Source of the DNA: Micromonospora coriariae
GTDB lineage: Bacteria > Actinomycetota > Actinomycetes > Mycobacteriales > Micromonosporaceae
Length of the DNA: 64,000 bases
Assembly (NCBI RefSeq): GCF_900091455.1
Contig: NZ_LT607412.1
Location: 5,642,001 to 5,706,000, forward strand
Reading direction: 5' to 3'
Shown: positions 44,564-58,221 of the stretch, piece after piece
Layout of the letters: the number at the start of each line of letters is the position of its first letter
Numbering within the stretch: position 1 is the first letter of the stretch
The notes under the pieces: model-generated
What the model saw: the letters and a program-made list of their open reading frames with translations, nothing else
Told to the model about the DNA's origin: nothing
Database searches by the model: none
Translations under genes and position numbers: made by a program

Positions 44564-45829
44564 CTACGGCTGGACCGGCCGGCGGAGCACCATCTTCGAG
44601 GGGTCGACCAGGCCGAGCCCGAGGATGCCGACGACCGGTAGGACCGTCAGCTGCCACAGTCCGGCGCCGTCCCAGCCGAGACCGGCCACCAGCCGCGCGA
44701 AGAGCAGCCCGGAGAACGCCGCGGCCACGTAGTAGGAGAGCATGAACAGGCCAGCGCCCCGTCCGACGTGTTCGGGTCGGACGGCTCGTTGCATCGCTGT
44801 CGTGCAGTTGGTGAAGAGGAAGCCGCTGGCGAAGGCGCCCATCAGGAAGGCGAGCACGTACTGGGCCGGTGCCGACGTGGCGACCTGGTAGGTGACGTAC
44901 GCGGTGGCGGACGTGGCGACGAAGGCGAAGGCGAGCAGGTAGCGCTGATTGACCCGGTCACCCAGCCAGCCGGCCGGCAGCGCCATCATCGCGCCGAAGC
45001 CCGAGATGGACACGGCCAGTGCCGCCTGCTCCGGGGTGAACCCGAGCTGCTCGCGCAGGAACGTGGGGTACAGGCCGAGGAAGCCGTAGAACACCAGCCC
45101 GGACACCGCGCAGGCGATGCCCAGGCCCAGGGTGTTGCGGTTGTACGGGCTCGCGGGCACGTGGTCGAAGCTGCCCTGCGGCCCGGCATTGGCGCCCGTA
45201 ACGGCCTCGGTCAGTCGCTTGTTGACGATCACGGCGATGAGCAGGCACATCACCAGGCCGGCCGCGGCGAAGACGAAGAACGGCGCCCGCCAGGTGTCCC
45301 ACACGTTGGCGAGCCTGGTCCCGACGAGGGGGCCGAGGAAGATGCCGGCGCCGAACGCGACACCCACCACGCCGGCGGCCACCGCCCTGCGGTGGAAGAA
45401 GAACGCGCCGATGACGGCGTAGAGCGCGGTGGCCTGCACGCCCTCGCCGACGCCGGAGATCAGGCGGTACACGCTCATGTCGACGAAGCCGGAGGCGAGC
45501 GGAATCGCCAGCGTCCCGATCGAGTAGACCAGGACACTGATCAGGATGATGGTCTTGCGGGAGACCCGGTCGACCAGGTACCCGGCGGGTAGGCCGGCCA
45601 GGGCGAGACCGAGCGTGAAGCCGGTCGCCAGCAGCCCGCCCTGATCCAGGGAGAAGCCGAACTCGCTGCGGATCTCGGGCAGCAGCGGGTAGAAGATCTG
45701 CCGGTCCATCGCGTTGAGCATGTATGAGGCGCACAGCACCGCGAATCCGACCGCGATCGACGCCCGGGTCAGGCCCGTGGTCGTTGCCGTGGACGGGGGC
45801 TCGGTCGGTTCCTTCAGTGTTTCGGTCAT
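44564..45829 (-). CDS. MFS transporter, 12-TM
   Basis: A 421-residue major facilitator with 12 predicted helices. The early ASYMLNAMDRQIFYPLLPEIRSEFGFSLDQGGLLATGFTLGLALAGLPAGYLVDRVSRK contains the DRQ and GxLaDRxGRK-type motif of organic-acid/aromatic-acid carriers (ACS or AAHS-like groups). It lies upstream of the lyase gene, but its own promoter carries a CGGAC, 4 bp, GTCCG palindrome like those at the ring-cleavage operon. I infer it imports the substrate of that pathway. The substrate itself is not identifiable. Confidence 0.85.
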   Translation of the reverse strand: MTETLKEPTEPPSTATTTGLTRASIAVGFAVLCASYMLNAMDRQIFYPLLPEIRSEFGFSLDQGGLLATGFTLGLALAGLPAGYLVDRVSRKTIILISVLVYSIGTLAIPLASGFVDMSVYRLISGVGEGVQATALYAVIGAFFFHRRAVAAGVVGVAFGAGIFLGPLVGTRLANVWDTWRAPFFVFAAAGLVMCLLIAVIVNKRLTEAVTGANAGPQGSFDHVPASPYNRNTLGLGIACAVSGLVFYGFLGLYPTFLREQLGFTPEQAALAVSISGFGAMMALPAGWLGDRVNQRYLLAFAFVATSATAYVTYQVATSAPAQYVLAFLMGAFASGFLFTNCTTAMQRAVRPEHVGRGAGLFMLSYYVAAAFSGLLFARLVAGLGWDGAGLWQLTVLPVVGILGLGLVDPSKMVLRRPVQP

Positions 45830-45922: not shown

Positions 45923-45993
45923 CGGACGGTTGTCCGTATGGTGATCAGTGGAAACGTTGGCGTAACGATGGAGCCTCTCCATTGGGCTGTCAA
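45923..45993 (-). promoter_or_regulatory. MFS promoter with operator shared with the catabolic cluster
   Basis: On the minus strand a consensus -35 TTGACA (45993-45988) is followed after 17 bp by CATCGT (45970-45965), placing the start near 45958. CGGAC (45923-45927) and GTCCG (45932-45936) with a 4-bp spacer form a palindrome about 25 bp into the transcript. The same half-sites and spacing occur at 53986-53999 and 54121-54134. Confidence 0.55.
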
Positions 45994-48347: not shown

Positions 48348-49772
48348 TCAGCGCTGGATGGACTTCGTCTCCAGGAACTCCTCCAGGCCGAAGCGCCCGA
48401 ACTCACGGCCGTTGCCGGACCGCTTGTAGCCGCCGAAGGGGGCGAGCGGGTTCCAGTGACCGGCGTTCACGTCGACCTGGCCCACCCGCAGCCGCTTCGC
48501 GACCGCCAGGGCGTGCTCCGGCTCGCCGAAGACGCCGCTGGTCAGGCCGTACAGCGTGCCGTTGGCGATGGTCACGGCCTCCTCCTCGTCGGCGTACGGG
48601 ATGATCGTCAGCACCGGGCCGAAGATCTCCTCCTGGGCGATAGCGGAGGTCGGGTCGACGTCCGCGAAGATCGTCGGCTGCACGTAGGCGCCCTTCGCCA
48701 GGCCCTCCGGCCGGCCCGGACCACCGAACACGAGCCGGGCGCCGTCGGCGACGCCCCGCTCGATGTACCCGACGACCTTCTGCCGGTGGGCCTCCGAGGC
48801 CATCGGACCGATCCGGGTCGCCTCGTCGGTCGGGTCGCCGACGGTGAACTGCTTCGCCGCCTCGACGGCCAGCGCCACGACCTCGTCCTGCCGGGAGGCG
48901 GGCACCAGCATCCGGGGCCACGCGCCGCAGACCTGGCCGCCGTTGGCGAACGACATCATCACGCCGGTGGTGACCGCCTTCGGCAGGTCGGCATCGTCCA
49001 GGATGATGTTCGCGCCCTTGCCGCCCAACTCCAGCGCGACCCGCTTGACGGTCGCCGCGGCCACCGCGCCGATCCGCTGCCCGGCCCGGGTGGAGCCGGT
49101 GAAGGAGATCATGTCGATGTCCGGGTGGGCGGAGATGGCCTCGCCGACGACCGCGCCGGTGCCGTACACCACGTTGAACACGCCCGCCGGCACGCCGGCC
49201 TCGGCGGCGGCCTCGGCGAGGATCCGCGCGGTCAGCGGGGCGTTCTCGGACGGCTTGAACACCATCGTGTTCCCCGCGAGCAGCGCCGGCGCGAGCTTGG
49301 AGACGATCTGCTGCAGCGGGAAGTTCCACGGCGTGATCGCACCGACCACCCCGATCGGCTCGCGGACGATCAGCGAGTTGCCGACCTCCTCGGTCCAGGC
49401 GAAGTCGTCGGCGAGGGCGGCGACGGATTCGATCACGGCGGCCGGGAAAGCGACCTGGGCGGTCCGGGACATGCCGATCGGCGAGCCCATCTCGACGGTG
49501 ATCGCCCCGGCGATCTCCTCCTGCCGGGCGGCGAGGCCGGCGCCGAGGCGGCGCAGCACGTCCGCCCGGTACTGCGGGGTGGTCGCCGCCCAGGCGGGGA
49601 AGGCCGCCCGGGCGGCGGCGACGGCCCGGTCGACGTCGGCGGCGGTGCCGGCCGGCGTCTCGGCGACGATGTCGCCGGTCGCCGGGTTCACGACGGGAAG
49701 GGTTCCGGCCGAGCCGGCGACGGTCTCGCCGCCGATCCAGTGGCCGGTGACGGTGTAGGTGGAAGGTGTCAT
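48348..49772 (-). CDS. Aldehyde dehydrogenase family protein
   Basis: A 474-residue NAD(P)-dependent aldehyde dehydrogenase. It has TPWNFPLQQIVSKLAPALLAGNTMVFKPSE, the glycine motif FTGSTRAGQRIG, the base Glu in LELGGKGANIIL and the nucleophilic Cys in ANGGQVCGAWPRM. It lies 84 bp after the MDR gene on the same strand and is the last gene of the operon. With the LigAB ring-cleavage enzymes upstream, a semialdehyde product of meta-cleavage is a plausible substrate (inference). The gap before it contains a small hairpin, arms CCAGGG (49820-49825) and CCCTGG (49835-49840). Confidence 0.93.
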   Translation of the reverse strand: MTPSTYTVTGHWIGGETVAGSAGTLPVVNPATGDIVAETPAGTAADVDRAVAAARAAFPAWAATTPQYRADVLRRLGAGLAARQEEIAGAITVEMGSPIGMSRTAQVAFPAAVIESVAALADDFAWTEEVGNSLIVREPIGVVGAITPWNFPLQQIVSKLAPALLAGNTMVFKPSENAPLTARILAEAAAEAGVPAGVFNVVYGTGAVVGEAISAHPDIDMISFTGSTRAGQRIGAVAAATVKRVALELGGKGANIILDDADLPKAVTTGVMMSFANGGQVCGAWPRMLVPASRQDEVVALAVEAAKQFTVGDPTDEATRIGPMASEAHRQKVVGYIERGVADGARLVFGGPGRPEGLAKGAYVQPTIFADVDPTSAIAQEEIFGPVLTIIPYADEEEAVTIANGTLYGLTSGVFGEPEHALAVAKRLRVGQVDVNAGHWNPLAPFGGYKRSGNGREFGRFGLEEFLETKSIQR

Positions 49773-49856
49773 GCACCGACCGTGGCACCGGCGCCGAGCC
49801 CCAACCAGGTGCGGTCTATCCAGGGTTTCGCGATCCCTGGCTGGGGCCGGGCCCGG

Positions 49857-50822
49857 TCAGAGCGCGAGGACGACGCGGCCGGCCGCGGTGCCGTTGTCCT
49901 GCCGGGACCAGGCGTCCGCGACCGAGGCGAACGGCACGATCTCGTGGTCGACGGTGAGCCGACCGGCGGCCGCGTGCCCGGCCACCACGGCCAGCGACGC
50001 CGCTCGCTGCTCGGTCGACAAACCGTTGTTGGTGTAGCCGATCAGCCGCAACGAGCCGCTGCGCAGCACCGCGGACTCGATCGGCGCTGTCGCGCCCGCG
50101 GCGCTGCCCAGGTTGACCAGGCGGCCACCCGGACGCAGCACCCGCAGCGCCGCCGCTGCCGGCACGCCGAAGACCGGATCGAGGACGAGGTCGATCGGAC
50201 CGTCGGCGGCGTCGCGTAGCCGGCCGGCCATCGACGCGACGTCGTCATCCGGGAACAGCGGGACGGCGACCGCGGCGCCGAGCTCCTCGGCGCGGGCCCG
50301 CGCCGAGGCGGAGCGGGCCACCGCGATCACGCGCCGCGCCCCGCCGAGCAGGGCCAGCTGAACGGCCGCCTGGCCGACCACGCCGCCGGCGCCGAGCACG
50401 ATGACCTGTTCACCGGGCGCCAGGTCGCCGGCGCCGGTCAGGGCCGCGTGCGCGGCGACCGCGGAGAGGCCCAGGGCGGCGAGCAGGGTCAGCGGTACGT
50501 CGGGTGGCAGCGCCACCACGTCGGCGGTGGGCACCGCGACAGTGGTCGCCATGCTGCCGTCGACTCCGGGCCGCATGCCGGCCGAGGTGCCGAACCAGAC
50601 GGGGGTGCCGTCGGCGAGCCGGCCGACACCCTGCACGCCCGGCACGTACGGAGTCGCCGGCGTGCCGAAGTAACTGGTGCCGGTGGCGCAGAGCACGTCG
50701 AGCGGGGTGATCGGCACCGCCTCGACGGTGATCATCACCTCGCCGTCGGCCGGCACGGGGGCCGGCCGCTCGGCGATGATCGGCGGAGTGCCGCAGGCGG
50801 TGAGCTGGGCCGCGCGGATCAC
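49857..50822 (-). CDS. Zinc-binding dehydrogenase family (MDR) oxidoreductase
   Basis: A 321-residue medium-chain dehydrogenase/reductase of the quinone reductase-like type. It contains PITPLDVLCATGTSYFGTPATPYVPGVQGVG, the Rossmann motif VIVLGAGGVVGQAAVQLALLGGARRV and DLVLDPVFG. Catalytic zinc ligands are not evident despite the family name. GTG 50822 overlaps the LigA-like stop, so it is coupled to the dioxygenase. It might reduce an unsaturated or keto intermediate after ring opening; the reaction is unknown. Confidence 0.87.
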   Translation of the reverse strand: MIRAAQLTACGTPPIIAERPAPVPADGEVMITVEAVPITPLDVLCATGTSYFGTPATPYVPGVQGVGRLADGTPVWFGTSAGMRPGVDGSMATTVAVPTADVVALPPDVPLTLLAALGLSAVAAHAALTGAGDLAPGEQVIVLGAGGVVGQAAVQLALLGGARRVIAVARSASARARAEELGAAVAVPLFPDDDVASMAGRLRDAADGPIDLVLDPVFGVPAAAALRVLRPGGRLVNLGSAAGATAPIESAVLRSGSLRLIGYTNNGLSTEQRAASLAVVAGHAAAGRLTVDHEIVPFASVADAWSRQDNGTAAGRVVLAL

Positions 50823-51181
50823 GTCGCGATGTCCGGGTAGGGCATCGCGAAGTGGGCCAGCCGAGCGCCGTAGGACTTCTGGTACTCCAGCGGCTCGGTG
50901 TTGTCCCGCTCGAAGAGGGCGATGAAGAGGGTCAGCGTCAGGAACGGGTGCGCACCCAACTCGAACAGCTTCACGTGGTCGTGGGCCGCCAGCGCCTCGC
51001 GCTCGACGTCGTCGAAGCGCAGCCAGGTGGTCGACTCACCGGTGTGGCAGTTGAGCACCGCGTTGGCACGTTCGGCCTCCCACCAGGCGACCAGCTCGCG
51101 CGGCTCGCGCCGGTAGCGCTCGACCAGCACCGGATCGCGGTCGACGGTGTAGAGGAACTTGTTCAGCAGGTACTTGCTCAT
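50819..51181 (-). CDS. Extradiol dioxygenase small subunit (LigA-like)
   Basis: A 120-residue protein matching the LigA (protocatechuate 4,5-dioxygenase alpha) domain: MSKYLLNKFLYTVDRDPVLVERYR, NCHTGESTTWLRFDDVEREALAAHDHVKLFELGAHPFLTLTLFIALFERDN. In LigAB-type enzymes this helical subunit caps the active site of the iron-bearing LigB subunit. It overlaps LigB upstream (ATGA) and the MDR gene downstream (GTGA). The B-before-A gene order is the reverse of the classical ligAB. Confidence 0.85.
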   Translation of the reverse strand: MSKYLLNKFLYTVDRDPVLVERYRREPRELVAWWEAERANAVLNCHTGESTTWLRFDDVEREALAAHDHVKLFELGAHPFLTLTLFIALFERDNTEPLEYQKSYGARLAHFAMPYPDIAT

Positions 51182-52044
51182 GCCGCCGGCGCTCCGTTCG
51201 GGTACCAGGTGAAGTACGCCTCCATGGTGTGGAACAGATCGAGGGTGTCGACGTAGTCGGCCTTCACGCCGGCCCCGGCCACACCCATCATGAGCATGAA
51301 GTCCATGAAGCCGTGGGTGGCGTTACCCGGCGAGTGCAGGCTGTCCAGCGTGACCTCGCGCAGACACCCGTCGAGGTCCCCGTTGGCGATCCACTCGACC
51401 GCCCGCTGGTCGAACTCCGGGTCCGGGCCGTGCGGGCCGAACTGCCGGGGCCCGCCCAGCTCGAGCGAGAGGTGGCCGGTGCCGATGACGGCGACCCGCA
51501 GGTGCGACGGCCACGACTCGACGATCTCCCGGATCGCCGCGCCGAGCTGGACGAAGCGCTTCGGCTGCGGCAGGGGTGGCGCGAAGATGTTCGTGTAGAT
51601 CGGCACGATCGGCAGGTCGGCCTCGGGCCGCAGCGTGATGATCGGGCAGGTGATGCTGTGGTCGATGCGCAGCTCGTTGCTGAACGCGAGGTCGAAGCCG
51701 GAGTCGAGCCCCGCGCGCAGGATGTGCGCGGACAGGTCCTCCTGGCCCTTGAGCAGCATGCGGGGCAGGCCGAACTCGCGCTCCTCGTTGTACCAGTTGG
51801 CGTCGTAGAAGGGCGCCTTGCCGACCAGGAACTGCGGCATGTTGTCCAGCCAGAGCTGGTGGAAGTGGTCGGAACCGACCATCACCAGCACGTCGGGCCG
51901 GGCCCGGGTCAGGGTCTCCCGGAACGCCAGGATCTTGCTGGTCCACTCGTCGGCGAACGGTGGCCGGTCCTCGCCCGTGGCCGTGCTGGCCCGGTAGTAG
52001 AAGGGGTGGTGGGTGGAGGCGATGACCGCGACGATGGAGGCCAT
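51178..52044 (-). CDS. Extradiol ring-cleavage dioxygenase catalytic subunit (LigB-like)
   Basis: A 288-residue class III extradiol dioxygenase. The iron-binding histidines are likely within STHHPFYYRA near the N-terminus and SDHFHQLW (about residue 60). The catalytic histidine region is GTGHLSLELGG (about 195), and NATHGFMDFMLMMG lies near the end. ATG 52044 fits GAGGAG 5 nt upstream; GTG 52050 would leave no spacing. The enzyme opens a catechol-type or aminophenol-type ring with O2. The substrate (protocatechuate, gallate, 2-aminophenol-like or other) cannot be told. Confidence 0.88.
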   Translation of the reverse strand: MASIVAVIASTHHPFYYRASTATGEDRPPFADEWTSKILAFRETLTRARPDVLVMVGSDHFHQLWLDNMPQFLVGKAPFYDANWYNEEREFGLPRMLLKGQEDLSAHILRAGLDSGFDLAFSNELRIDHSITCPIITLRPEADLPIVPIYTNIFAPPLPQPKRFVQLGAAIREIVESWPSHLRVAVIGTGHLSLELGGPRQFGPHGPDPEFDQRAVEWIANGDLDGCLREVTLDSLHSPGNATHGFMDFMLMMGVAGAGVKADYVDTLDLFHTMEAYFTWYPNGAPAA

Positions 52045-52077
52045 TCCCACTCCTCTCGGGGGCTGAAAAAGGGGGGC

Positions 52078-52848
52078 TCAGGGTTCGTAGACGGCGTTGC
52101 GGTCGACGGTGCGGTAGATGTCCATGCCGAGCGGCCGGCGCCGCTCCTCGGCGAGGTGCCCGAGCAGCCCCGCCGCGCGGGCCAGCAGGGCGAAACCGCG
52201 CAACATCTCGACCGGGAGCCCGAGGTCGGCGAGCGCTGCGCCGCAGACCCCGGCGCCGTTGAGCGGCAGGGTCCGGCCGAGCACCTGCGGGTGTACGCGT
52301 CCGACCGCCTCGAACAGCCGCAGGTGCGGGCCGTGCAGGCCCTCCTCGGTGGCGATCCTGATCAGCACGGGGGTGCGCGGGTCCTGCTCCTTGTGCACGG
52401 GGTGCCCGAGCCCGGGGACCAGTCGACGCTCCTGCTTGGCCCGGGTGACGGCGTCCAGCGCCACGGCGTCGTAGTCGGTCACCTCGCCGGCCTGGGCGAG
52501 TGTGTCGGCGAGGAAGCGTCCACAGTCCTCGGTGACACCGAGGAAGCGCGAGCCGCCACCGAGCAGGCCGGCGGCGAGCGCGCCCTGCAGCGACTCCGGC
52601 GCGGACAAGTAGGTGAGTCGGGCGGCGATCGCCGTCGGGGTGAAGCCGTGGTCGGCGAGCGCCACCAGCACCGCCTCGAAGACCCGCACCTCGCCCGGGG
52701 TGGGTCGGCGGCCGGCGACCAGCCAGTACGCCAGCTCACCGAAGCCGACCTTGCCCATCAGGTCGGCGGCCAGATCCTGCCCGAGCAGCGAGATGGTGGT
52801 CGGGTCGGACGTGCCGATCCCGGTCGGGAAGCTCAGCTCTTCAGCCAC
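52078..52848 (-). CDS. Citrate synthase-fold lyase (citryl-CoA lyase-like)
   Basis: A 256-residue short citrate-synthase-family protein, smaller than true citrate synthase (about 380-430). It has GLGHPVHKEQDPRTPVL, where His matches a catalytic His, and LPLNGAGVCGAALADLGLPVEMLRGFALLARAAGLLGHLAEE, the pattern of the citryl-CoA lyase group. GTG 52848 overlaps the end of the CoA-transferase by 16 bp and has GAGGAG upstream. Family knowledge suggests Claisen-type cleavage of a citryl- or citramalyl-type CoA ester. Following a CoA-transferase, it probably splits the CoA ester that enzyme makes. Confidence 0.82.
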   Translation of the reverse strand: MAEELSFPTGIGTSDPTTISLLGQDLAADLMGKVGFGELAYWLVAGRRPTPGEVRVFEAVLVALADHGFTPTAIAARLTYLSAPESLQGALAAGLLGGGSRFLGVTEDCGRFLADTLAQAGEVTDYDAVALDAVTRAKQERRLVPGLGHPVHKEQDPRTPVLIRIATEEGLHGPHLRLFEAVGRVHPQVLGRTLPLNGAGVCGAALADLGLPVEMLRGFALLARAAGLLGHLAEERRRPLGMDIYRTVDRNAVYEP

Positions 52849-53969
52849 GCGCGGATCTCCTCGCCGTGTTCGTCGAGCCCGGGCGGCGGCAGCTCGTACC
52901 GGGCGGGGGTGTCGGAGAAGGTGATGGGGTTGCGGACCCCCGGCACGTCGCCGACGGCGACCACCGGGTCGAGCCCCAGCTCCTGGGCGAGCGCCACGCC
53001 GCCGTCGATGGTGTTGATCGGTGCGCACGGTACGCCTGCGGCGAGCAGGTCGCGGAACCACTCGTCCTTGGTCCGCTTGGCGAGTCGTTCGACGAGCAGG
53101 GGTCGCAGCTGTTCGCGGTTGGCGGTGCGGTCCTGGTTGCGCCCGAAGCGCGGGTCGTCGGGAAGGTCGGGCAGGTCGAGCACCTGGCAGAGCTTGCGGA
53201 ACTGCCCGTCGTTGCCGGCGATGACGATCAGCTCGCCGTCGGCCGTGGGCAGCGGCTCGTACGGGAAGAGGCTGGGGTGCGCGTTGCCCATCCGGAACGG
53301 GACGGTGCCACCCGCGACGTAGCCGCTGGAGTGGTTGACCAGGCCGGACAGCGCCGAGCTGAGCAGGTTGACCTCGACGTGCTGCCCCTTGCCGGTCGCG
53401 CCCCGGTGGTGCAGCGCGGCGAGGATGCCGATGCTCGCGTGCAGCCCGGCCATCACGTCGAACACGGAGATGCCGGCCCGGTACGGCGGGCCGTCCGGGT
53501 CGCCGGTGAGACTCATCAGGCCGGAGATCGCCTGCACCATCAGGTCGTAGCCGGGGAAGTCCGCTCCGGCGCCGGTGCCGAAACCGCTGATGCTCGCGTA
53601 GACGACCTTCTCGTTGCCGGCGGTGACGGTGTCGTAGTCCAGGCCGAAGCGGGCCAGGCCGCCGGGCCGGAAGTTCTCGATCATCACGTCGGCGCGGCGG
53701 GCGAGTTCCTGCGCGGCCGCCAGGTCGTCCGGCTTCTTGAGGTCGAGGGCGACCGACCGCTTGTTGCGGTTGATGCCGAGGTAGTACGTCGAGACGCCGT
53801 CGCGGGTGGGTGGCATCCAGGTGCGGGTGTCGTCGCCACCGGGACTCTCCACCTTGATCACCTGCGCGCCCAGATCGGCCAGGAGCATCGTGGCGTACGG
53901 CCCGGCGAGAATCCGGGAGAAGTCCGCGACGAGCAGGCCGGCCAGTGGCCCCGTCGAATGCTGCACCAT
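52833..53969 (-). CDS. Family III CoA-transferase (CaiB/BaiF)
   Basis: A 378-residue CoA-transferase: LAGLLVADFSRILAGPYATMLLADLGAQVIKVESPGGDDTR, the SVALDLKKPDD segment, ADVMIENFRPGGLARFGLDYD, and the catalytic Asp in PGYDLMVQAISGLMSLTG. The family moves CoA between carboxylic acids without a phosphorylated intermediate. It is the first gene of the minus-strand operon and is followed directly by the citryl-CoA lyase-like gene, so the pair probably activates and cleaves a di- or tricarboxylic acid. Its promoter region contains a 24-bp palindrome. Confidence 0.9.
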   Translation of the reverse strand: MVQHSTGPLAGLLVADFSRILAGPYATMLLADLGAQVIKVESPGGDDTRTWMPPTRDGVSTYYLGINRNKRSVALDLKKPDDLAAAQELARRADVMIENFRPGGLARFGLDYDTVTAGNEKVVYASISGFGTGAGADFPGYDLMVQAISGLMSLTGDPDGPPYRAGISVFDVMAGLHASIGILAALHHRGATGKGQHVEVNLLSSALSGLVNHSSGYVAGGTVPFRMGNAHPSLFPYEPLPTADGELIVIAGNDGQFRKLCQVLDLPDLPDDPRFGRNQDRTANREQLRPLLVERLAKRTKDEWFRDLLAAGVPCAPINTIDGGVALAQELGLDPVVAVGDVPGVRNPITFSDTPARYELPPPGLDEHGEEIRAWLKS

Positions 53970-53980
53970 GTTTCCGCCCG

Positions 53981-54036
53981 TTCTGCGGACACCTGTCCGC
54001 AGAAACCAGCTTGCGTTACCGATCGTGGGCTGTCAA
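53981..54036 (-). promoter_or_regulatory. Promoter and 24-bp palindromic operator of the ring-cleavage operon
   Basis: Perfect inverted repeat TTCTGCGGACA (53981-53991) and TGTCCGCAGAA (53994-54004) around CC, with core CGGAC, ACCT, GTCCG at 53986-53999. On the minus strand TTGACA (54036-54031) and CAAGCT (54013-54008), 17 bp apart, place the start near 54001, at the operator edge. The IclR regulator encoded 1.6 kb away is the natural candidate. Confidence 0.65.
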
Positions 54037-54065
54037 CGGTCAGTTCATCGCGCCGAAACACGTCC

Positions 54066-54134
54066 TTGACACGACTTCGTGACCGGGACCACACTGGCGC
54101 CACTCGGGCTGGCCGCACAGCGGACAACGGTCCG
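54066..54134 (+). promoter_or_regulatory. Amidohydrolase-IclR promoter with operator
   Basis: TTGACA (54066-54071) and CACACT (54090-54095), 18 bp apart, place the start near 54102. CGGAC (54121-54125), AACG, GTCCG (54130-54134) lies about 20 bp downstream, in the leader. The half-sites and 4-bp spacing match the operators at 53986 and 45923. Confidence 0.55.
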
Positions 54135-54166
54135 AACCCCTCGTACCCGGAAAGGAATGGGTGGCG

Positions 54167-55603
54167 ATGAGCGCAACCTCCCGGCCGGTGATCTTCCGCA
54201 ACGGCCTGGTTCTCACCATGGACGACGCACACACGGTGCTGCCGGGCGCCGACGTGCTGGTCATCGGCGACCGGATCGCGGAGGTCGGCGTCGGCCTCGC
54301 CGCCCCCGACGACGCCCTGGAGATCGACGCCGCCGGCGGCATCCTGATGCCGGGAATGGTCGACACCCACCGGCACATGTGGCAGACCGCCATGCGCGGG
54401 TACGGCGCCGACTGGACCCTGACGCAGTACTTCGTCTGGTACTACCTGGAATCCGGCAAGCTGTTCCGGCCCGAGGACGTGTACGCGGGCAACCTGCTCG
54501 CCGCGATCGAGGCGGTCGACGCGGGCGTCACCACCACCGTCGACTGGTCGCACGGCCTCCAGACACCCGAGCACGCCGACGCGGCCGTCGACGCCCTCGA
54601 GGCGGTCGACGGACGGTTCGTGCTCGCCTACGGCAACATCCAGCAGGGCCCGTGGGAGTGGGCCACCTCGCCGGAGTTCCGCGACTTCCACCGGCGCCGG
54701 ATCGACGGCGGCAAGCTGGCCGGATTCCAGATGGCGTTCGACGTCACAGGCGATCCCGCCTTCCCCGAGCGCGCCGCCTTCGAGGTGGCCCGGGAGTTGG
54801 GCGCCGCGGTGACCACCCACGCCGGTGTCTGGGGCGCCACCAACGACGACGGCATCCGGCTGATGCACGAGCACGGCTTCATGAACCCGTCGACCGTCTA
54901 CGTGCACGCGGCGACGCTCACCCACGACTCGTACAACCGGATCGCCGCCACCGGCGGCTCCGTCTCGGTCTCCACCGAGAGCGAGCAGAGCGCCGGGCAG
55001 GGCTACCCGCCCACCTGGCAACTGCGCCACCACGACATCCCGGTGTCGCTCTCCATGGACACCAGCGTCTGGTGGAGCGGCGATCTCTTCTCGGCGATGC
55101 GGACCACGCTCGGCGCCGACCGCTCCCGGGAGCACCTGGAGGCGCACGCCAAGCAGGACACCATCACCCACTGCCACCTGCGGGCCGAACAGGTCGTCGA
55201 GTGGGCCACCCGGGGCGGCGCCCGCGCGCTCGGCATGGACTCCACGATCGGCGCCCTCACCCCCGGCCGGCAGGCCGACATCGTCCTGATCAAGAACGAC
55301 GCCTCGCCGGTGATGTTCCCGATCCTCAACCCGCACGGTCACGTCGTCTTCCAGGCCCAGCGCGGCGACGTGCACACCGTGCTGGTGGGCGGCCGGGTCG
55401 TCAAGCGGGACGGCCGGCTGGTCGGCGTCGACCTCGCCGCCGCTCGGGACAGGGTGGCGGCGACGATCGACCACCTCCGCGAGACCATGGGGGAGGAGGC
55501 GTGGCTGCGGGGCATGAACCCGGACGTCCCCGAGACCGCGATCCTGGAGAACCCGTACCAGTACACCGAGTGGGACGCCGGCTCGGCGCAATGGAAGCAT
55601 TAG
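54167..55603 (+). CDS. Amidohydrolase / TrzA-type deaminase family protein
   Basis: A 478-residue metal-dependent amidohydrolase of the cytosine deaminase/chlorohydrolase (TrzA-like) group. It opens with FRNGLVLTMDDAHTVLPGADVLV, and has the metal-binding GMVDTHRHMWQTAMRG, THAGVW in the barrel, SMDTSVWWSGDLF with a possible metal Asp, and the C-terminal GALTPGRQADIVLI. Members remove amino or halide groups from heterocycles. ATG 54167 is preferred (GAAAGGAA upstream), with GTG 54161 as an alternative. It is the first gene of the divergent arm and may deaminate or open an N-containing precursor of the ring-cleavage substrate (inference). Confidence 0.87.
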   Translation: MSATSRPVIFRNGLVLTMDDAHTVLPGADVLVIGDRIAEVGVGLAAPDDALEIDAAGGILMPGMVDTHRHMWQTAMRGYGADWTLTQYFVWYYLESGKLFRPEDVYAGNLLAAIEAVDAGVTTTVDWSHGLQTPEHADAAVDALEAVDGRFVLAYGNIQQGPWEWATSPEFRDFHRRRIDGGKLAGFQMAFDVTGDPAFPERAAFEVARELGAAVTTHAGVWGATNDDGIRLMHEHGFMNPSTVYVHAATLTHDSYNRIAATGGSVSVSTESEQSAGQGYPPTWQLRHHDIPVSLSMDTSVWWSGDLFSAMRTTLGADRSREHLEAHAKQDTITHCHLRAEQVVEWATRGGARALGMDSTIGALTPGRQADIVLIKNDASPVMFPILNPHGHVVFQAQRGDVHTVLVGGRVVKRDGRLVGVDLAAARDRVAATIDHLRETMGEEAWLRGMNPDVPETAILENPYQYTEWDAGSAQWKH

Positions 55604-55606
55604 GAC

Positions 55607-56410
55607 ATGAGTGACAACGGAAGGGGCGCCGGGCCCGACTTCATCGAGGCTCTCGCCCGGGGTCTCGACGTCCTGCGCTCCTTCCGTCCGGCCTGCCCGT
55701 CGATGACGCTCAGTGAGATCGCCGCCGCCACCGGCCTGGCCCGGCCCACGGTCCGGCGCATCCTCATCACCCTCGAATCGCTGGGCTACGTCCGCGCGGT
55801 CGGCCGTGGCCACACCCTCACCCCGCGCGTTTTGGAACTGGGAATGGCGTACGTCAACGCGCTGAACATGTGGGACGTGGCCCGTCCGCACATGGAGAAG
55901 CTCGTCGCGCAGACCAACGAGTCCACCTCGATGGCCCAGCTCGACGGCAGCGACATCGTCTACGTCGCCCGCGTCGCCGTACCGAAGATCGTCACGCTCG
56001 CCGTGACCATCGGCACCCGCTTCCCGGCCCCCGCGACGTCGATGGGCAAGGTGCTGCTCGCGGGGCTGCCGCCGGAGACGCTGGCCGACGTGCTCGCCGA
56101 GCCGACCCGCTCCGGGATCACGCCCCGCTGGCAGCCCTCGCCCGGCGAGCTGGACGCCGTGCTGCGCGAGGTGCGCGCGAAGGGTTGGGCGCTCGCCGAC
56201 CAGGATCTCGCACCGGGGATCCGGTCCGTCGCCACCGGAGTCCGCGATGGCGACGGCCGTGTTATCGCCGCGATCAACGTCACTGTGCACGCCGCCGAGA
56301 CGTCGCTGGAGACTCTGGTGGACGAGCACCTGCCGCGGTTGCTGCGCGCCGCCGCCGACATCGGGCACGACTGGGCGTTGACCGCCGCGGTGCCGGTCAC
56401 CACCGCCTGA
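55607..56410 (+). CDS. IclR family transcriptional regulator
   Basis: A 267-residue IclR/PcaR-type regulator. The winged helix contains PSMTLSEIAAATGLARPTVRRILITLESLGYVRAVGRGHTLTPRVLELG. The ligand-binding domain follows with SMAQLDGSDIVYVARV, GTRFPAPATSMGKVLLAGLPPE and GIRSVATGVRDGDGRVIAAINVTVHA. It lies only 3 bp after the amidohydrolase and is co-transcribed with it. PcaR/PobR-like members respond to aromatic acids. The palindromes at 53981, 54121 and 45923 are probably its sites (inference). Confidence 0.92.
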   Translation: MSDNGRGAGPDFIEALARGLDVLRSFRPACPSMTLSEIAAATGLARPTVRRILITLESLGYVRAVGRGHTLTPRVLELGMAYVNALNMWDVARPHMEKLVAQTNESTSMAQLDGSDIVYVARVAVPKIVTLAVTIGTRFPAPATSMGKVLLAGLPPETLADVLAEPTRSGITPRWQPSPGELDAVLREVRAKGWALADQDLAPGIRSVATGVRDGDGRVIAAINVTVHAAETSLETLVDEHLPRLLRAAADIGHDWALTAAVPVTTA

Positions 56411-56640: not shown

Positions 56641-58221
56641 GTGACCCAGCAATCTGTCGCGACATCGGACAAACTCGACGCCGCGGTGCTCAAGGTGGCG
56701 GGCGTCGTCGTCCTCGGCGCGATCATGTCGATCCTCGACGTGACGGTGGTCAGCGTCGCGCTGCCGAAGTTCCAGAGCGAGTTCGACGCGTCCTACGCCC
56801 GCGTCGCGTGGACGATGACCGCCTACACCCTCGCCCTGGCCACGGTGATCCCGCTGAGCGGGTGGGCAGCCGACCGGTTCGGCACCAAACGCCTCTACAT
56901 GGTGGCGCTGGCCCTGTTCACGATCGGGTCCGGGCTCTGCGCAACCGCCGACACGATCGGCGAGCTCATCGGCTACCGCGTCCTGCAGGGCCTCGGCGGC
57001 GGCATGCTCATGCCGCTGGGCATGACCATCATGACCCGGGCCGCCGGGCCGCACCGGATCGGCCGGTTGATGGCGGTCCTCGGCATCCCGATGCTGCTCG
57101 GGCCGATCTGCGGCCCGATCCTGGGTGGCTGGCTGATCGACACCGCGAGCTGGCACTGGATCTTCCTGATCAACCTGCCGATCGGCGTGATCGCGTTGGT
57201 CTACGCGCAGCTGGCGCTTCCGAAGGACGCTCCCGAGCCGTCGGAGTCGTTCGACTTCATCGGCATGCTGATGCTCTCACCCGGGCTGGCGCTGTTCCTC
57301 TACGGCGTCTCGTCACTGCCGGAGACGGGCACCTTCGCCGAGACGAAGGTGTGGGCGCCCATGCTGGTCGGCGCCGCGCTGGTGGTGGCGTTCGTGCTCT
57401 ACTCCTTCAAGCCTCGGCACCCGCTGCTCGACCTGCGGCTGTTCACCAACCGCAACCTGACAATCGCCTCGGTGACGCTGTTCGTGTTCATCATCGCGTT
57501 CATGGGCGCCGGCCTGCTGTTCCCGAGCTACTTCCTTCAGGTGCGCGGCGAGTCCACGCTGGCCGCCGGTCTGCTGATGGCACCGCAGGGCATCGGCGCG
57601 ATGATCACCATGCCGATCGCCGGCACGCTGGCCGACCGGGTGCCCATCGGTCGCACGGTCCCGTTCGCGCTGGCGCTCATCGTCGTCGGGTTCTTCAGCT
57701 TCACCCAGGTCGACCCGCAGACCTCGTACTGGCTGCTCGGCGGGTCGTTGTTCGTGATGGGCCTCGGCATGGGCGGCACGATGATGCCGATCATGACGTC
57801 AGCGCTGCGGACGTTGCAGGCCCAGGACGTGGCGCGCGGCTCCACGCTTGTCAACATCCTTCAGCAGATCGGCGGGTCGATCGGCGCGGCGGTGATGTCG
57901 GTGATCCTCACCAACGAGCTGAACGGGTCCCGGCCGATCCCCGGCCTGGTGGACCCGAGCGGCAAGCCGGTCACCGAGGCCGGGTTGGCCATCGCCGCCC
58001 AGCAGCGGCCGGAGCTGCTCCAGCAGACGCCGGTGGACCCGTCGCTCATCGAGCGCGGGCTCGACTTCGCCGCCAAGTCGTTCGCCACCACGTTCTGGGT
58101 CGCGTTCGCGCTGGTGCTGCTCACCTTCATTCCGGCTGCCCTGCTGCCGCGTCGGCGCCAGCCGGCGCAGCCGCTCGACGAGCAGGGCGAGCTGGTCAAG
58201 GCGCCCGTCGTCATCCACTGA
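56641..58221 (+). CDS. DHA2-family MFS multidrug/efflux transporter (EmrB/QacA-like)
   Basis: A 526-residue transporter with 14 predicted helices. It contains LDVTVVSVALPKFQSEFDAS, GWAADRFGTKRLYM (motif A), RVLQGLGGGMLMPLGMTIMTR and PMLLGPICGPILGGWLID (motif C, antiporter signature), as in EmrB/QacA proton-coupled exporters. GTG 56641 is preceded by AGGAGAG. It is separated from iclR by 230 bp with a short hairpin (GACCGG at 56409, CCGGTC at 56419). Membership of the catabolic regulon is possible but no matching operator was seen. Confidence 0.92.
   Translation: MTQQSVATSDKLDAAVLKVAGVVVLGAIMSILDVTVVSVALPKFQSEFDASYARVAWTMTAYTLALATVIPLSGWAADRFGTKRLYMVALALFTIGSGLCATADTIGELIGYRVLQGLGGGMLMPLGMTIMTRAAGPHRIGRLMAVLGIPMLLGPICGPILGGWLIDTASWHWIFLINLPIGVIALVYAQLALPKDAPEPSESFDFIGMLMLSPGLALFLYGVSSLPETGTFAETKVWAPMLVGAALVVAFVLYSFKPRHPLLDLRLFTNRNLTIASVTLFVFIIAFMGAGLLFPSYFLQVRGESTLAAGLLMAPQGIGAMITMPIAGTLADRVPIGRTVPFALALIVVGFFSFTQVDPQTSYWLLGGSLFVMGLGMGGTMMPIMTSALRTLQAQDVARGSTLVNILQQIGGSIGAAVMSVILTNELNGSRPIPGLVDPSGKPVTEAGLAIAAQQRPELLQQTPVDPSLIERGLDFAAKSFATTFWVAFALVLLTFIPAALLPRRRQPAQPLDEQGELVKAPVVIH

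What the first reader, a model, noticed from the sequence alone, without database searches (positions are those of the whole stretch)
48348..56410. Ring-cleavage cluster pairing LigAB with a CoA-transferase and a citryl-CoA lyase-like enzyme: possible undescribed catabolic route
One tightly overlapped minus-strand operon encodes a family III CoA-transferase, a short citrate-synthase-fold lyase, LigB, LigA, an MDR oxidoreductase and an aldehyde dehydrogenase, divergent from a TrzA-type amidohydrolase and an IclR regulator. In the known protocatechuate 4,5-cleavage pathway the final tricarboxylic intermediate is split by an aldolase without CoA. Here a CoA-transferase plus citryl-CoA lyase-like enzyme suggests the acid is first made a CoA ester and then cleaved, giving acetyl-CoA or a related product. 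The amidohydrolase could prepare an N-containing aromatic or heterocycle. Presence and order of genes are seen; the pathway is inference.
Basis: partly seen in the sequence, partly recalled or inferred. Interest (0 to 1): 0.72.

Follow-up and report, generated by a model that had tools for sequence, protein, structure and literature searches.

The report
Conserved ring-cleavage cluster with odd enzymes
A set of six to seven genes, kept together in many soil actinobacteria and partly in rhizobia, looks like an undescribed breakdown route that ends by CoA activation and splitting, and its key enzymes lack catalytic residues of the well-known enzymes they are named after.

Summary
Observation confirmed: all eight genes lie where stated. 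CoA-transferase, short citrate-synthase-like lyase, LigB-like and LigA-like genes lie in order on one strand in 78 of 80 best-scoring relatives (two are on short contigs); amidohydrolase and IclR are in 67 of 69 loci with full flanks. The four also occur together on alphaproteobacterial plasmids. The ALDH is a local addition.

The interpretation needs changing. The LigB-like protein belongs to a clade without the iron-binding glutamate and the GxSH histidine. The lyase lacks two of three citrate-synthase catalytic residues, both kept in a solved citryl-CoA lyase. The amidohydrolase keeps metal ligands but not the deaminase glutamate.

Best reading: an IclR-controlled catabolic island in which a remodelled LigAB-fold enzyme and an amidohydrolase make a hydroxy acid that is loaded with CoA and split. 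Substrate and chemistry are inferred. None of the papers listed in my searches appears to describe it.

The parts
44564..45829 (-). MFS transporter (MFS1), possible importer of the substrate; probably same regulon
   Evidence: PF07690 5e-66; palindrome at 45923; near the cluster in 3 of 80 loci: Pseudonocardia L099 and Nonomuraea L101 (71-73% identity) and Micromonospora L043 (97%)
45923..45936 (.). Palindrome CGGAC-N4-GTCCG, two-part (no third half-site), about 93 bp upstream of MFS1
   Evidence: one of three such sites in 64 kb; a palindrome also lies upstream of MFS1 in L043
48348..49772 (-). Aldehyde dehydrogenase; accessory, kept (91% identity or more) only in Micromonospora among the 80 loci
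   Evidence: PF00171 3e-161; 11 of 80 loci, 8 of 69 with full flanks
49857..50822 (-). MDR oxidoreductase, PIG3-quinone-reductase-like; frequent but dispensable
   Evidence: TIGR02824 best model, 84.5 bits, below its cut-off 296.8; 64 of 69 loci
50819..51181 (-). LigA-like small subunit
   Evidence: 69 of 69 loci; outer-clade relatives pass PF07746; alignment
51178..52050 (-). LigB-like subunit of a Glu-less, GxSH-less clade of the PCAD-Memo superfamily; start perhaps ATG at 52044
52078..52848 (-). Short citrate-synthase-fold CoA lyase (NCBIfam 'citryl-CoA lyase' NF004868) without the His274/Asp375 pair
   Evidence: 304 bits, cut-off 193
52833..53969 (-). Family III CoA-transferase; best NCBIfam model is succinate--glutarate CoA-transferase
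   Evidence: PF02515 4e-118; NF052585 373 bits, below its 750 cut-off; solved relatives 4ed9, 10uh, 4hl6, 9br7
53976..53999 (-). Three-part operator in front of the CoA-transferase operon
   Evidence: at least one three-part site in 77 of 80 loci
54111..54134 (-). Three-part operator in front of the amidohydrolase-IclR operon
54161..55603 (+). Amidohydrolase, COG0402/PRK08204-like; metal ligands kept, HxxE Glu missing
   Evidence: NF006056 400 bits, cut-off 391; 67 of 69 loci
55607..56410 (+). IclR-family regulator, PcaR/PcaU/PobR-like
   Evidence: TIGR02431 266 bits, under its cut-off 284.75; 67 of 69 loci

Best explanation
An IclR-controlled catabolic island for an imported aromatic or other ring carboxylate. 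The IclR protein (likely effector: the substrate) acts at the CGGAC-N4-GTCCG sites in front of the CoA-transferase operon, the amidohydrolase-IclR operon and the MFS gene (sites shown, binding inferred). The LigAB-fold heterodimer opens or transforms the ring with a rebuilt metal site, two His instead of two His and a Glu (residues shown, reaction inferred). The amidohydrolase hydrates or hydrolyses the product, as amidohydrolase-fold LigI and LigJ do in the protocatechuate 4,5-cleavage route (recalled parallel, inferred here). The CoA-transferase loads the resulting 3-hydroxy di- or tricarboxylate with CoA, and the citrate-synthase-fold lyase splits it to acetyl-CoA and an oxo acid, in place of the CoA-free aldolase (inferred). 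MDR in actinobacteria, or an FMN reductase in some alphaproteobacteria, removes a quinonoid side product (inferred).
Against: The LigB clade lacks the Fe-ligand Glu (Gly or Gln in 33 of 33 rows) and the GxSH His, so ring cleavage by O2 cannot be assumed. The lyase lacks His274 and Asp375 equivalents in 29 of 29. LigBA stands without lyase and CoA-transferase in view in Rhizobium L139 and L145 and in actinobacterial L128. No amidohydrolase was found in Aminobacter L137 or Rhizobium L144, and only an 81-residue piece in L146. The palindrome is absent from five alphaproteobacterial plasmid loci (L137, L138, L140, L144, L146). The MFS gene is near the cluster in only 3 of 80 loci, and its site lacks the third half-site. 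No substrate is known.
Confidence: 0.4

Rival explanations
1. Non-oxygenase route: the Glu-less LigAB is no longer a dioxygenase but a metal-dependent hydrolase, hydratase, isomerase or decarboxylase, and the island consumes a non-aromatic unsaturated or cyclic di- or tricarboxylate: hydration, CoA transfer, cleavage.
For: Loss of the Glu ligand and the GxSH His in the whole clade sampled; Cupriavidus N-1 has lyase + CoA-transferase + LeuC + LeuD with no ring-cleavage gene annotated within 7 kb; no hydroxylase or LigC/LigI/LigJ/LigK family recurs around the cluster.
Against: PobR-like regulator, an aromatic hydroxylase gene in one version, LigA-like subunit always kept; H14, H62 and H131 invariant in 239 homologues, as the matching histidines are in the dioxygenases.
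Confidence: 0.3
2. One reading: a true LigAB opens protocatechuate or gallate, and a true citryl-CoA lyase cleaves the CoA ester of 4-carboxy-4-hydroxy-2-oxoadipate.
For: Domain families and operon; that intermediate is a citrate analogue (chemistry, recalled).
Against: GxSH and the Glu ligand of the protocatechuate enzymes (PMC8431788) are not met; the lyase lacks His274 and Asp375 equivalents; the split would leave 2,4-dioxoglutarate, for which no obvious enzyme is in the cluster.
Confidence: 0.1
3. The amidohydrolase is the oxygenase: like KpiC, an Amidohydro_1 protein reported to open 3,4-dihydroxypyridine, it cleaves a hydroxypyridine, and LigAB does a later step.
For: KpiC precedent (PMC7356986, section 3.4 and passages); the amidohydrolase here has metal ligands but no HxxE Glu; the Rhodococcus version has a hydroxylase, an alpha/beta hydrolase and an amidohydrolase side by side, as kpiA, kpiB and kpiC encode.
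Against: KpiC's only characterised near homologue is reported to be an enamidase (28% identity); the best solved matches of ours are atrazine chlorohydrolase and an uncharacterised amidohydrolase. No KpiC sequence was available to compare. Aminobacter L137, Rhizobium L144 and the LigBA-only loci showed no homologue.
Confidence: 0.1

Closest known systems
LigAB protocatechuate 4,5-dioxygenase / DesB-GalA gallate dioxygenase (PCAD-Memo superfamily)
   Different: Glu ligand replaced by Gly or Gln, GxSH His replaced by Leu or Asn; E89 and R91 kept across the clade, H193 in all clade rows but L130, and H274 and E277 in the core family
Citryl-CoA lyase (PDB 6hxp) and the ATP-citrate lyase CS domain
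   Same: Short C-terminal citrate-synthase domain; GH motif (His320 equivalent) kept; paired with a CoA-activating enzyme
   Different: No His at the His274 column, Ala/Ser/Thr at the Asp375 column, an added GHxxH His
Protocatechuate 4,5-cleavage pathway (LigABC-I-J-K)
   Same: LigAB-fold enzyme plus an amidohydrolase-fold enzyme under an aromatic-acid-type regulator
   Different: No LigC, LigI, LigJ or LigK family recurs nearby; CoA-transferase plus CS-fold lyase instead of the aldolase
kpi cluster for 4-hydroxypyridine, Arthrobacter sp. IN13
   Same: A flavin monooxygenase, an alpha/beta hydrolase and an Amidohydro_1 protein together, as in the Rhodococcus version
   Different: kpi is reported to have no LigB-type homologue, and the passages read name no CoA-transferase or lyase

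Membership tests
LigAB-type class III extradiol dioxygenase (PCAD-Memo) | LigB fold and Pfam domain | tested here: met
LigAB-type class III extradiol dioxygenase (PCAD-Memo) | Two His iron ligands (SHxP and NDH motifs) | tested here: met
   H14 and H62 in 239 of 239 listed homologues, though in the core family the motifs read THHP and SDH or ADH, so the Asn of NDH is missing
LigAB-type class III extradiol dioxygenase (PCAD-Memo) | Glu iron ligand (E264 of PcaA, PMC8431788) | tested here: not met
   Gly in 31 and Gln in 2 of 33 clade rows, Glu in 11 of 11 others; Gly in 239 of 239
LigAB-type class III extradiol dioxygenase (PCAD-Memo) | GxSH His | tested here: not met
   Leu or Asn in 33 of 33; His in 9 of 11 outside rows, lost also in sister rows L143 and L165
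LigAB-type class III extradiol dioxygenase (PCAD-Memo) | LigA-type subunit | tested here: met
   Gene in 69 of 69 loci with full flanks; homology through outer relatives
LigAB-type class III extradiol dioxygenase (PCAD-Memo) | O2-dependent ring cleavage | not testable with these tools
   needs enzyme assay
Citryl-CoA lyase | Curated family model | tested here: met
   NF004868 304 bits, cut-off 193
Citryl-CoA lyase | Catalytic His/Asp of the citrate-synthase fold, as in 6hxp | tested here: not met
   0 of 29 lyases have His at the His274 column or Asp/Glu at the Asp375 column; His320 kept in 29 of 29
COG0402 deaminase / triazine hydrolase | HxH, His, His, Asp metal ligands | tested here: met
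   conserved in the four amidohydrolases aligned
COG0402 deaminase / triazine hydrolase | HxxE catalytic Glu (recalled as the deaminase acid/base) | tested here: not met
   THAGV here against THLAE in 3hpa; absent in the four aligned
PcaR/PcaU/PobR regulators | TIGR02431 above cut-off | tested here: not met
   266 bits against 284.75; next IclR model 123.6 bits
Protocatechuate 4,5-cleavage operon | LigC, LigI, LigJ, LigK neighbours | tested here: not met
   no further gene family recurred in four or more of 35 diverse loci; one MFS family in three; one RraA-like gene elsewhere in the genome
KpiC-type amidohydrolase dioxygenase | sequence similarity to KpiC | not tested
   no KpiC sequence (MT469879) was obtained

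The most novel reading that the evidence does not exclude
A widespread, undescribed catabolic pathway of Actinomycetota and Alphaproteobacteria in which two enzymes work with chemistry new to their folds: a LigAB-fold enzyme without the two-His-one-carboxylate site, and a citrate-synthase-fold CoA lyase without the His274/Asp375 pair.
Probability: 0.5. Interest if true: 0.78.

Novelty: new variant of a known kind. Interest (0 to 1): 0.62.

Why it matters
The proteins are named in public databases as 'extradiol ring-cleavage dioxygenase', 'protocatechuate 4,5-dioxygenase beta chain' and 'citryl-CoA lyase', and pathway predictions build on such names. The clade shows that two familiar folds survive, highly conserved (LigB 80% or more identical between members of different classes of the phylum), without residues held to be catalytic. 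That makes a concrete, testable case for either carboxylate-free O2 activation or a change of reaction. The operator gives a ready handle: if, as inferred, one regulator controls the three transcription units, the inducer can be sought with a reporter before the pathway is known.

Tried and rejected
Mimosine/3-hydroxy-4-pyridone PydA: reported to be PF02900, but the conserved regions quoted in PMC3637104 (DDHFENH, EWICGM) are unlike this clade; set aside as a direct match, without a PydA sequence to align.

Inactive-subunit idea (recalled: 2-aminophenol dioxygenases pair two LigB-fold subunits): the genome has only one other PF02900 match, L002, about 763 kb away. H246 as a substitute iron ligand: present in only 227 of 239 homologues, so not a strict replacement.

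Other conserved neighbours: none in four or more of 35 loci (frames of 150 aa or more, 30% identity). A first clustering was spoiled by antisense frames and was discarded. Whole-genome operator scan: 35 palindromes against 16 for the reversed-pattern control, so many of the others may be background; four exact three-part sites, two of them here. With one mismatch the three-part pattern does not stand out from its control (45 against 41 matches on both strands). I did not inspect the genes beside the other sites.

Papers: searches returned none. Searches (20 of 235 listed; 9; 20; 16; 10 of 56; 8 of 12; 2) returned listings. I read passages of PMC8431788, PMC10094722, PMC2864759, PMC13118837, PMC8455617, PMC4524684 and PMC3637104, and section 3.4 plus passages of PMC7356986. 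No whole paper was read.

Coordinates cannot be read here, so metal distances were not measured.
Full report
What is there. The window lies in a 6.93-Mb single-contig genome whose nearest named LigB homologues are from Micromonospora. The lyase starts most plausibly at GTG 52848, overlapping the end of the CoA-transferase gene. It has only the C-terminal part of the citrate synthase domain (profile positions 154-349 of 357) and passes NCBIfam's 'citryl-CoA lyase' subfamily model NF004868 (304 bits, cut-off 193). LigB scores best against class III extradiol models but far below their cut-offs (128.7 against 290 bits).

How widely it is kept. In a sample of 150 genomes of the family, 41 have a LigB match at E <= 1e-30: 39 at 83% identity or more, including the genome itself, and two at about 40%. 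So it is patchy: at least 13 genomes of the same genus have none. In 396 genomes of the phylum, 11 match: 10 at 80% or more, again including the genome itself, and one at 35%. A scan of one genome per species found 389 relatives, of which the best 80 loci were kept. In 78 of these 80 the genes CoA-transferase, lyase, LigB and LigA lie in order on one strand; the other two are on short contigs. Of 69 loci with full flanks, 69 have all four, 67 the amidohydrolase, 67 the IclR gene, 64 the MDR gene and 8 the ALDH gene. Of ten more distant actinobacterial loci (L121-L128, L131, L132), nine have all four; in L131 lyase and CoA-transferase lie on the other strand, and L128 shows LigB and LigA only. 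In the 30 short family loci (L001 and L003-L031) the core is seen in 29; L015 has only a lyase remnant and no CoA-transferase in view. Around 35 loci no further gene family recurred in four or more.

On plasmid records. LigB orthologues at 62-66% identity are found in Rhodococcus, Aminobacter, Sinorhizobium, Neorhizobium, Rhizobium and Martelella. Lyase, CoA-transferase, LigB and LigA are together in Rhodococcus L136, Aminobacter L137, Sinorhizobium L138, Martelella L140 and Rhizobium L144, and in Neorhizobium L146 with genes broken between frames. Rhizobium L139 and L145 have LigB and LigA alone. Extra genes differ: FMN reductase, TRAP or ABC transporters, a CocE-type hydrolase, a gene annotated as an aromatic hydroxylase. 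In Rhodococcus rhodochrous L147 the CoA-transferase and lyase stand without LigAB, near an IclR 62% identical to the window's.

The lyase. Aligned with the genome's two citrate synthases, 29 of 29 lyases checked (window, 17 actinobacterial loci, 11 plasmid relatives) lack His at the His274 column and Asp or Glu at the Asp375 column; they keep the His320 motif and add a second His, GHxxH. One relative (L154) has a His next to the His274 column. The solved citryl-CoA lyase 6hxp keeps both AHGGA and NVDGA. The three citrate synthase active-site residues are named in PMC8455617 (passage). The same residue losses are seen in lyases that sit with CoA-transferase and LeuCD (Cupriavidus) or with acyl-CoA ligases and dehydrogenases. 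So the name 'citryl-CoA lyase' is a family label for this branch, while a role on CoA thioesters is well supported by context.

Amidohydrolase and CoA-transferase. The amidohydrolase keeps HxH, His, His and Asp but not the HxxE glutamate of deaminases (the role of that Glu is recalled). The CoA-transferase's best NCBIfam model is succinate--glutarate CoA-transferase, below its cut-off. Its best solved matches are an unassigned CaiB/BaiF protein, a formyl-CoA transferase, YfdE and then succinate--hydroxymethylglutarate CoA-transferase. The product of the last has a hydroxyl on carbon 3, as citryl-CoA has (recalled chemistry).

Regulation. The divergent promoter region holds CGGAC-N4-GTCCG in 73 of 73 regions (window plus the 72 of 80 loci with this arrangement); 69 have two copies. 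Density is 9.3 per kb inside against 0.0036 per kb in the rest of those loci, and a Markov control gives a mean of 0.125 of 73 regions, at most 2. A third half-site, CGGNC, lies 19 bases after the start of the palindrome; 77 of 80 loci have at least one three-part site. The genome has 35 palindromes and four exact three-part sites, two of the latter in this promoter. The window has one more palindrome, without the third part, about 93 bp before the MFS gene 44564-45829, and Micromonospora L043 repeats it. A palindrome plus a direct third repeat is how I recall the PcaU/PobR operators of Acinetobacter. The palindrome also lies before the CoA-transferase in R. rhodochrous L147, where LigAB is absent, but not in the five alphaproteobacterial plasmid loci searched.

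Verdict. The cluster is real and conserved, and none of the papers listed appears to describe it (searches listed only part of what they found). But the central enzymes fail tests of membership by mechanism, so filing it as a LigAB plus citryl-CoA lyase pathway is not warranted. The best reading is a variant ring-acid catabolic route with remodelled enzymes (0.4), with a non-oxygenase route close behind (0.3).

Noticed in passing
window 45923, 53986, 54121: Conserved palindromic operator of the cluster; the first site suggests that the MFS transporter 44564-45829 is in the same regulon.
   Followed up: yes
L142:211-1224: Protein annotated 'protocatechuate 3,4-dioxygenase' in Polymorphobacter is a LigB-family (PF02900) protein.
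   Followed up: partly
L147:7665-9783: Rhodococcus rhodochrous BX2 plasmid: CoA-transferase and lyase with the same palindrome upstream but no LigAB, among Rieske oxygenase genes.
   Followed up: partly
L155:6992-11034: Cupriavidus necator N-1 pBB2: lyase + CoA-transferase + LeuC/LeuD-like hydratase, possibly a simpler relative of this pathway for an unsaturated acid.
   Followed up: partly
L015: In one family member the cluster may be decaying or rearranged: only a lyase remnant and no CoA-transferase in the 3.9 kb held, with an IclR gene next to it.
   Followed up: no
L143:7929-8843 and L165:5962-6840: LigB relatives that keep the Glu ligand but have lost the GxSH His, with no CoA-transferase or lyase homologue found nearby: an apparent halfway stage.
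   Followed up: partly
G000:C1:4929792-4930556 (L002): The genome's second LigB-family gene, with the usual Glu and His, far from this cluster.
   Followed up: partly
window 56641-58221: DHA2-family efflux transporter downstream of the IclR gene; close homologues (93% or more) lie near the cluster in many Micromonospora loci.
   Followed up: no
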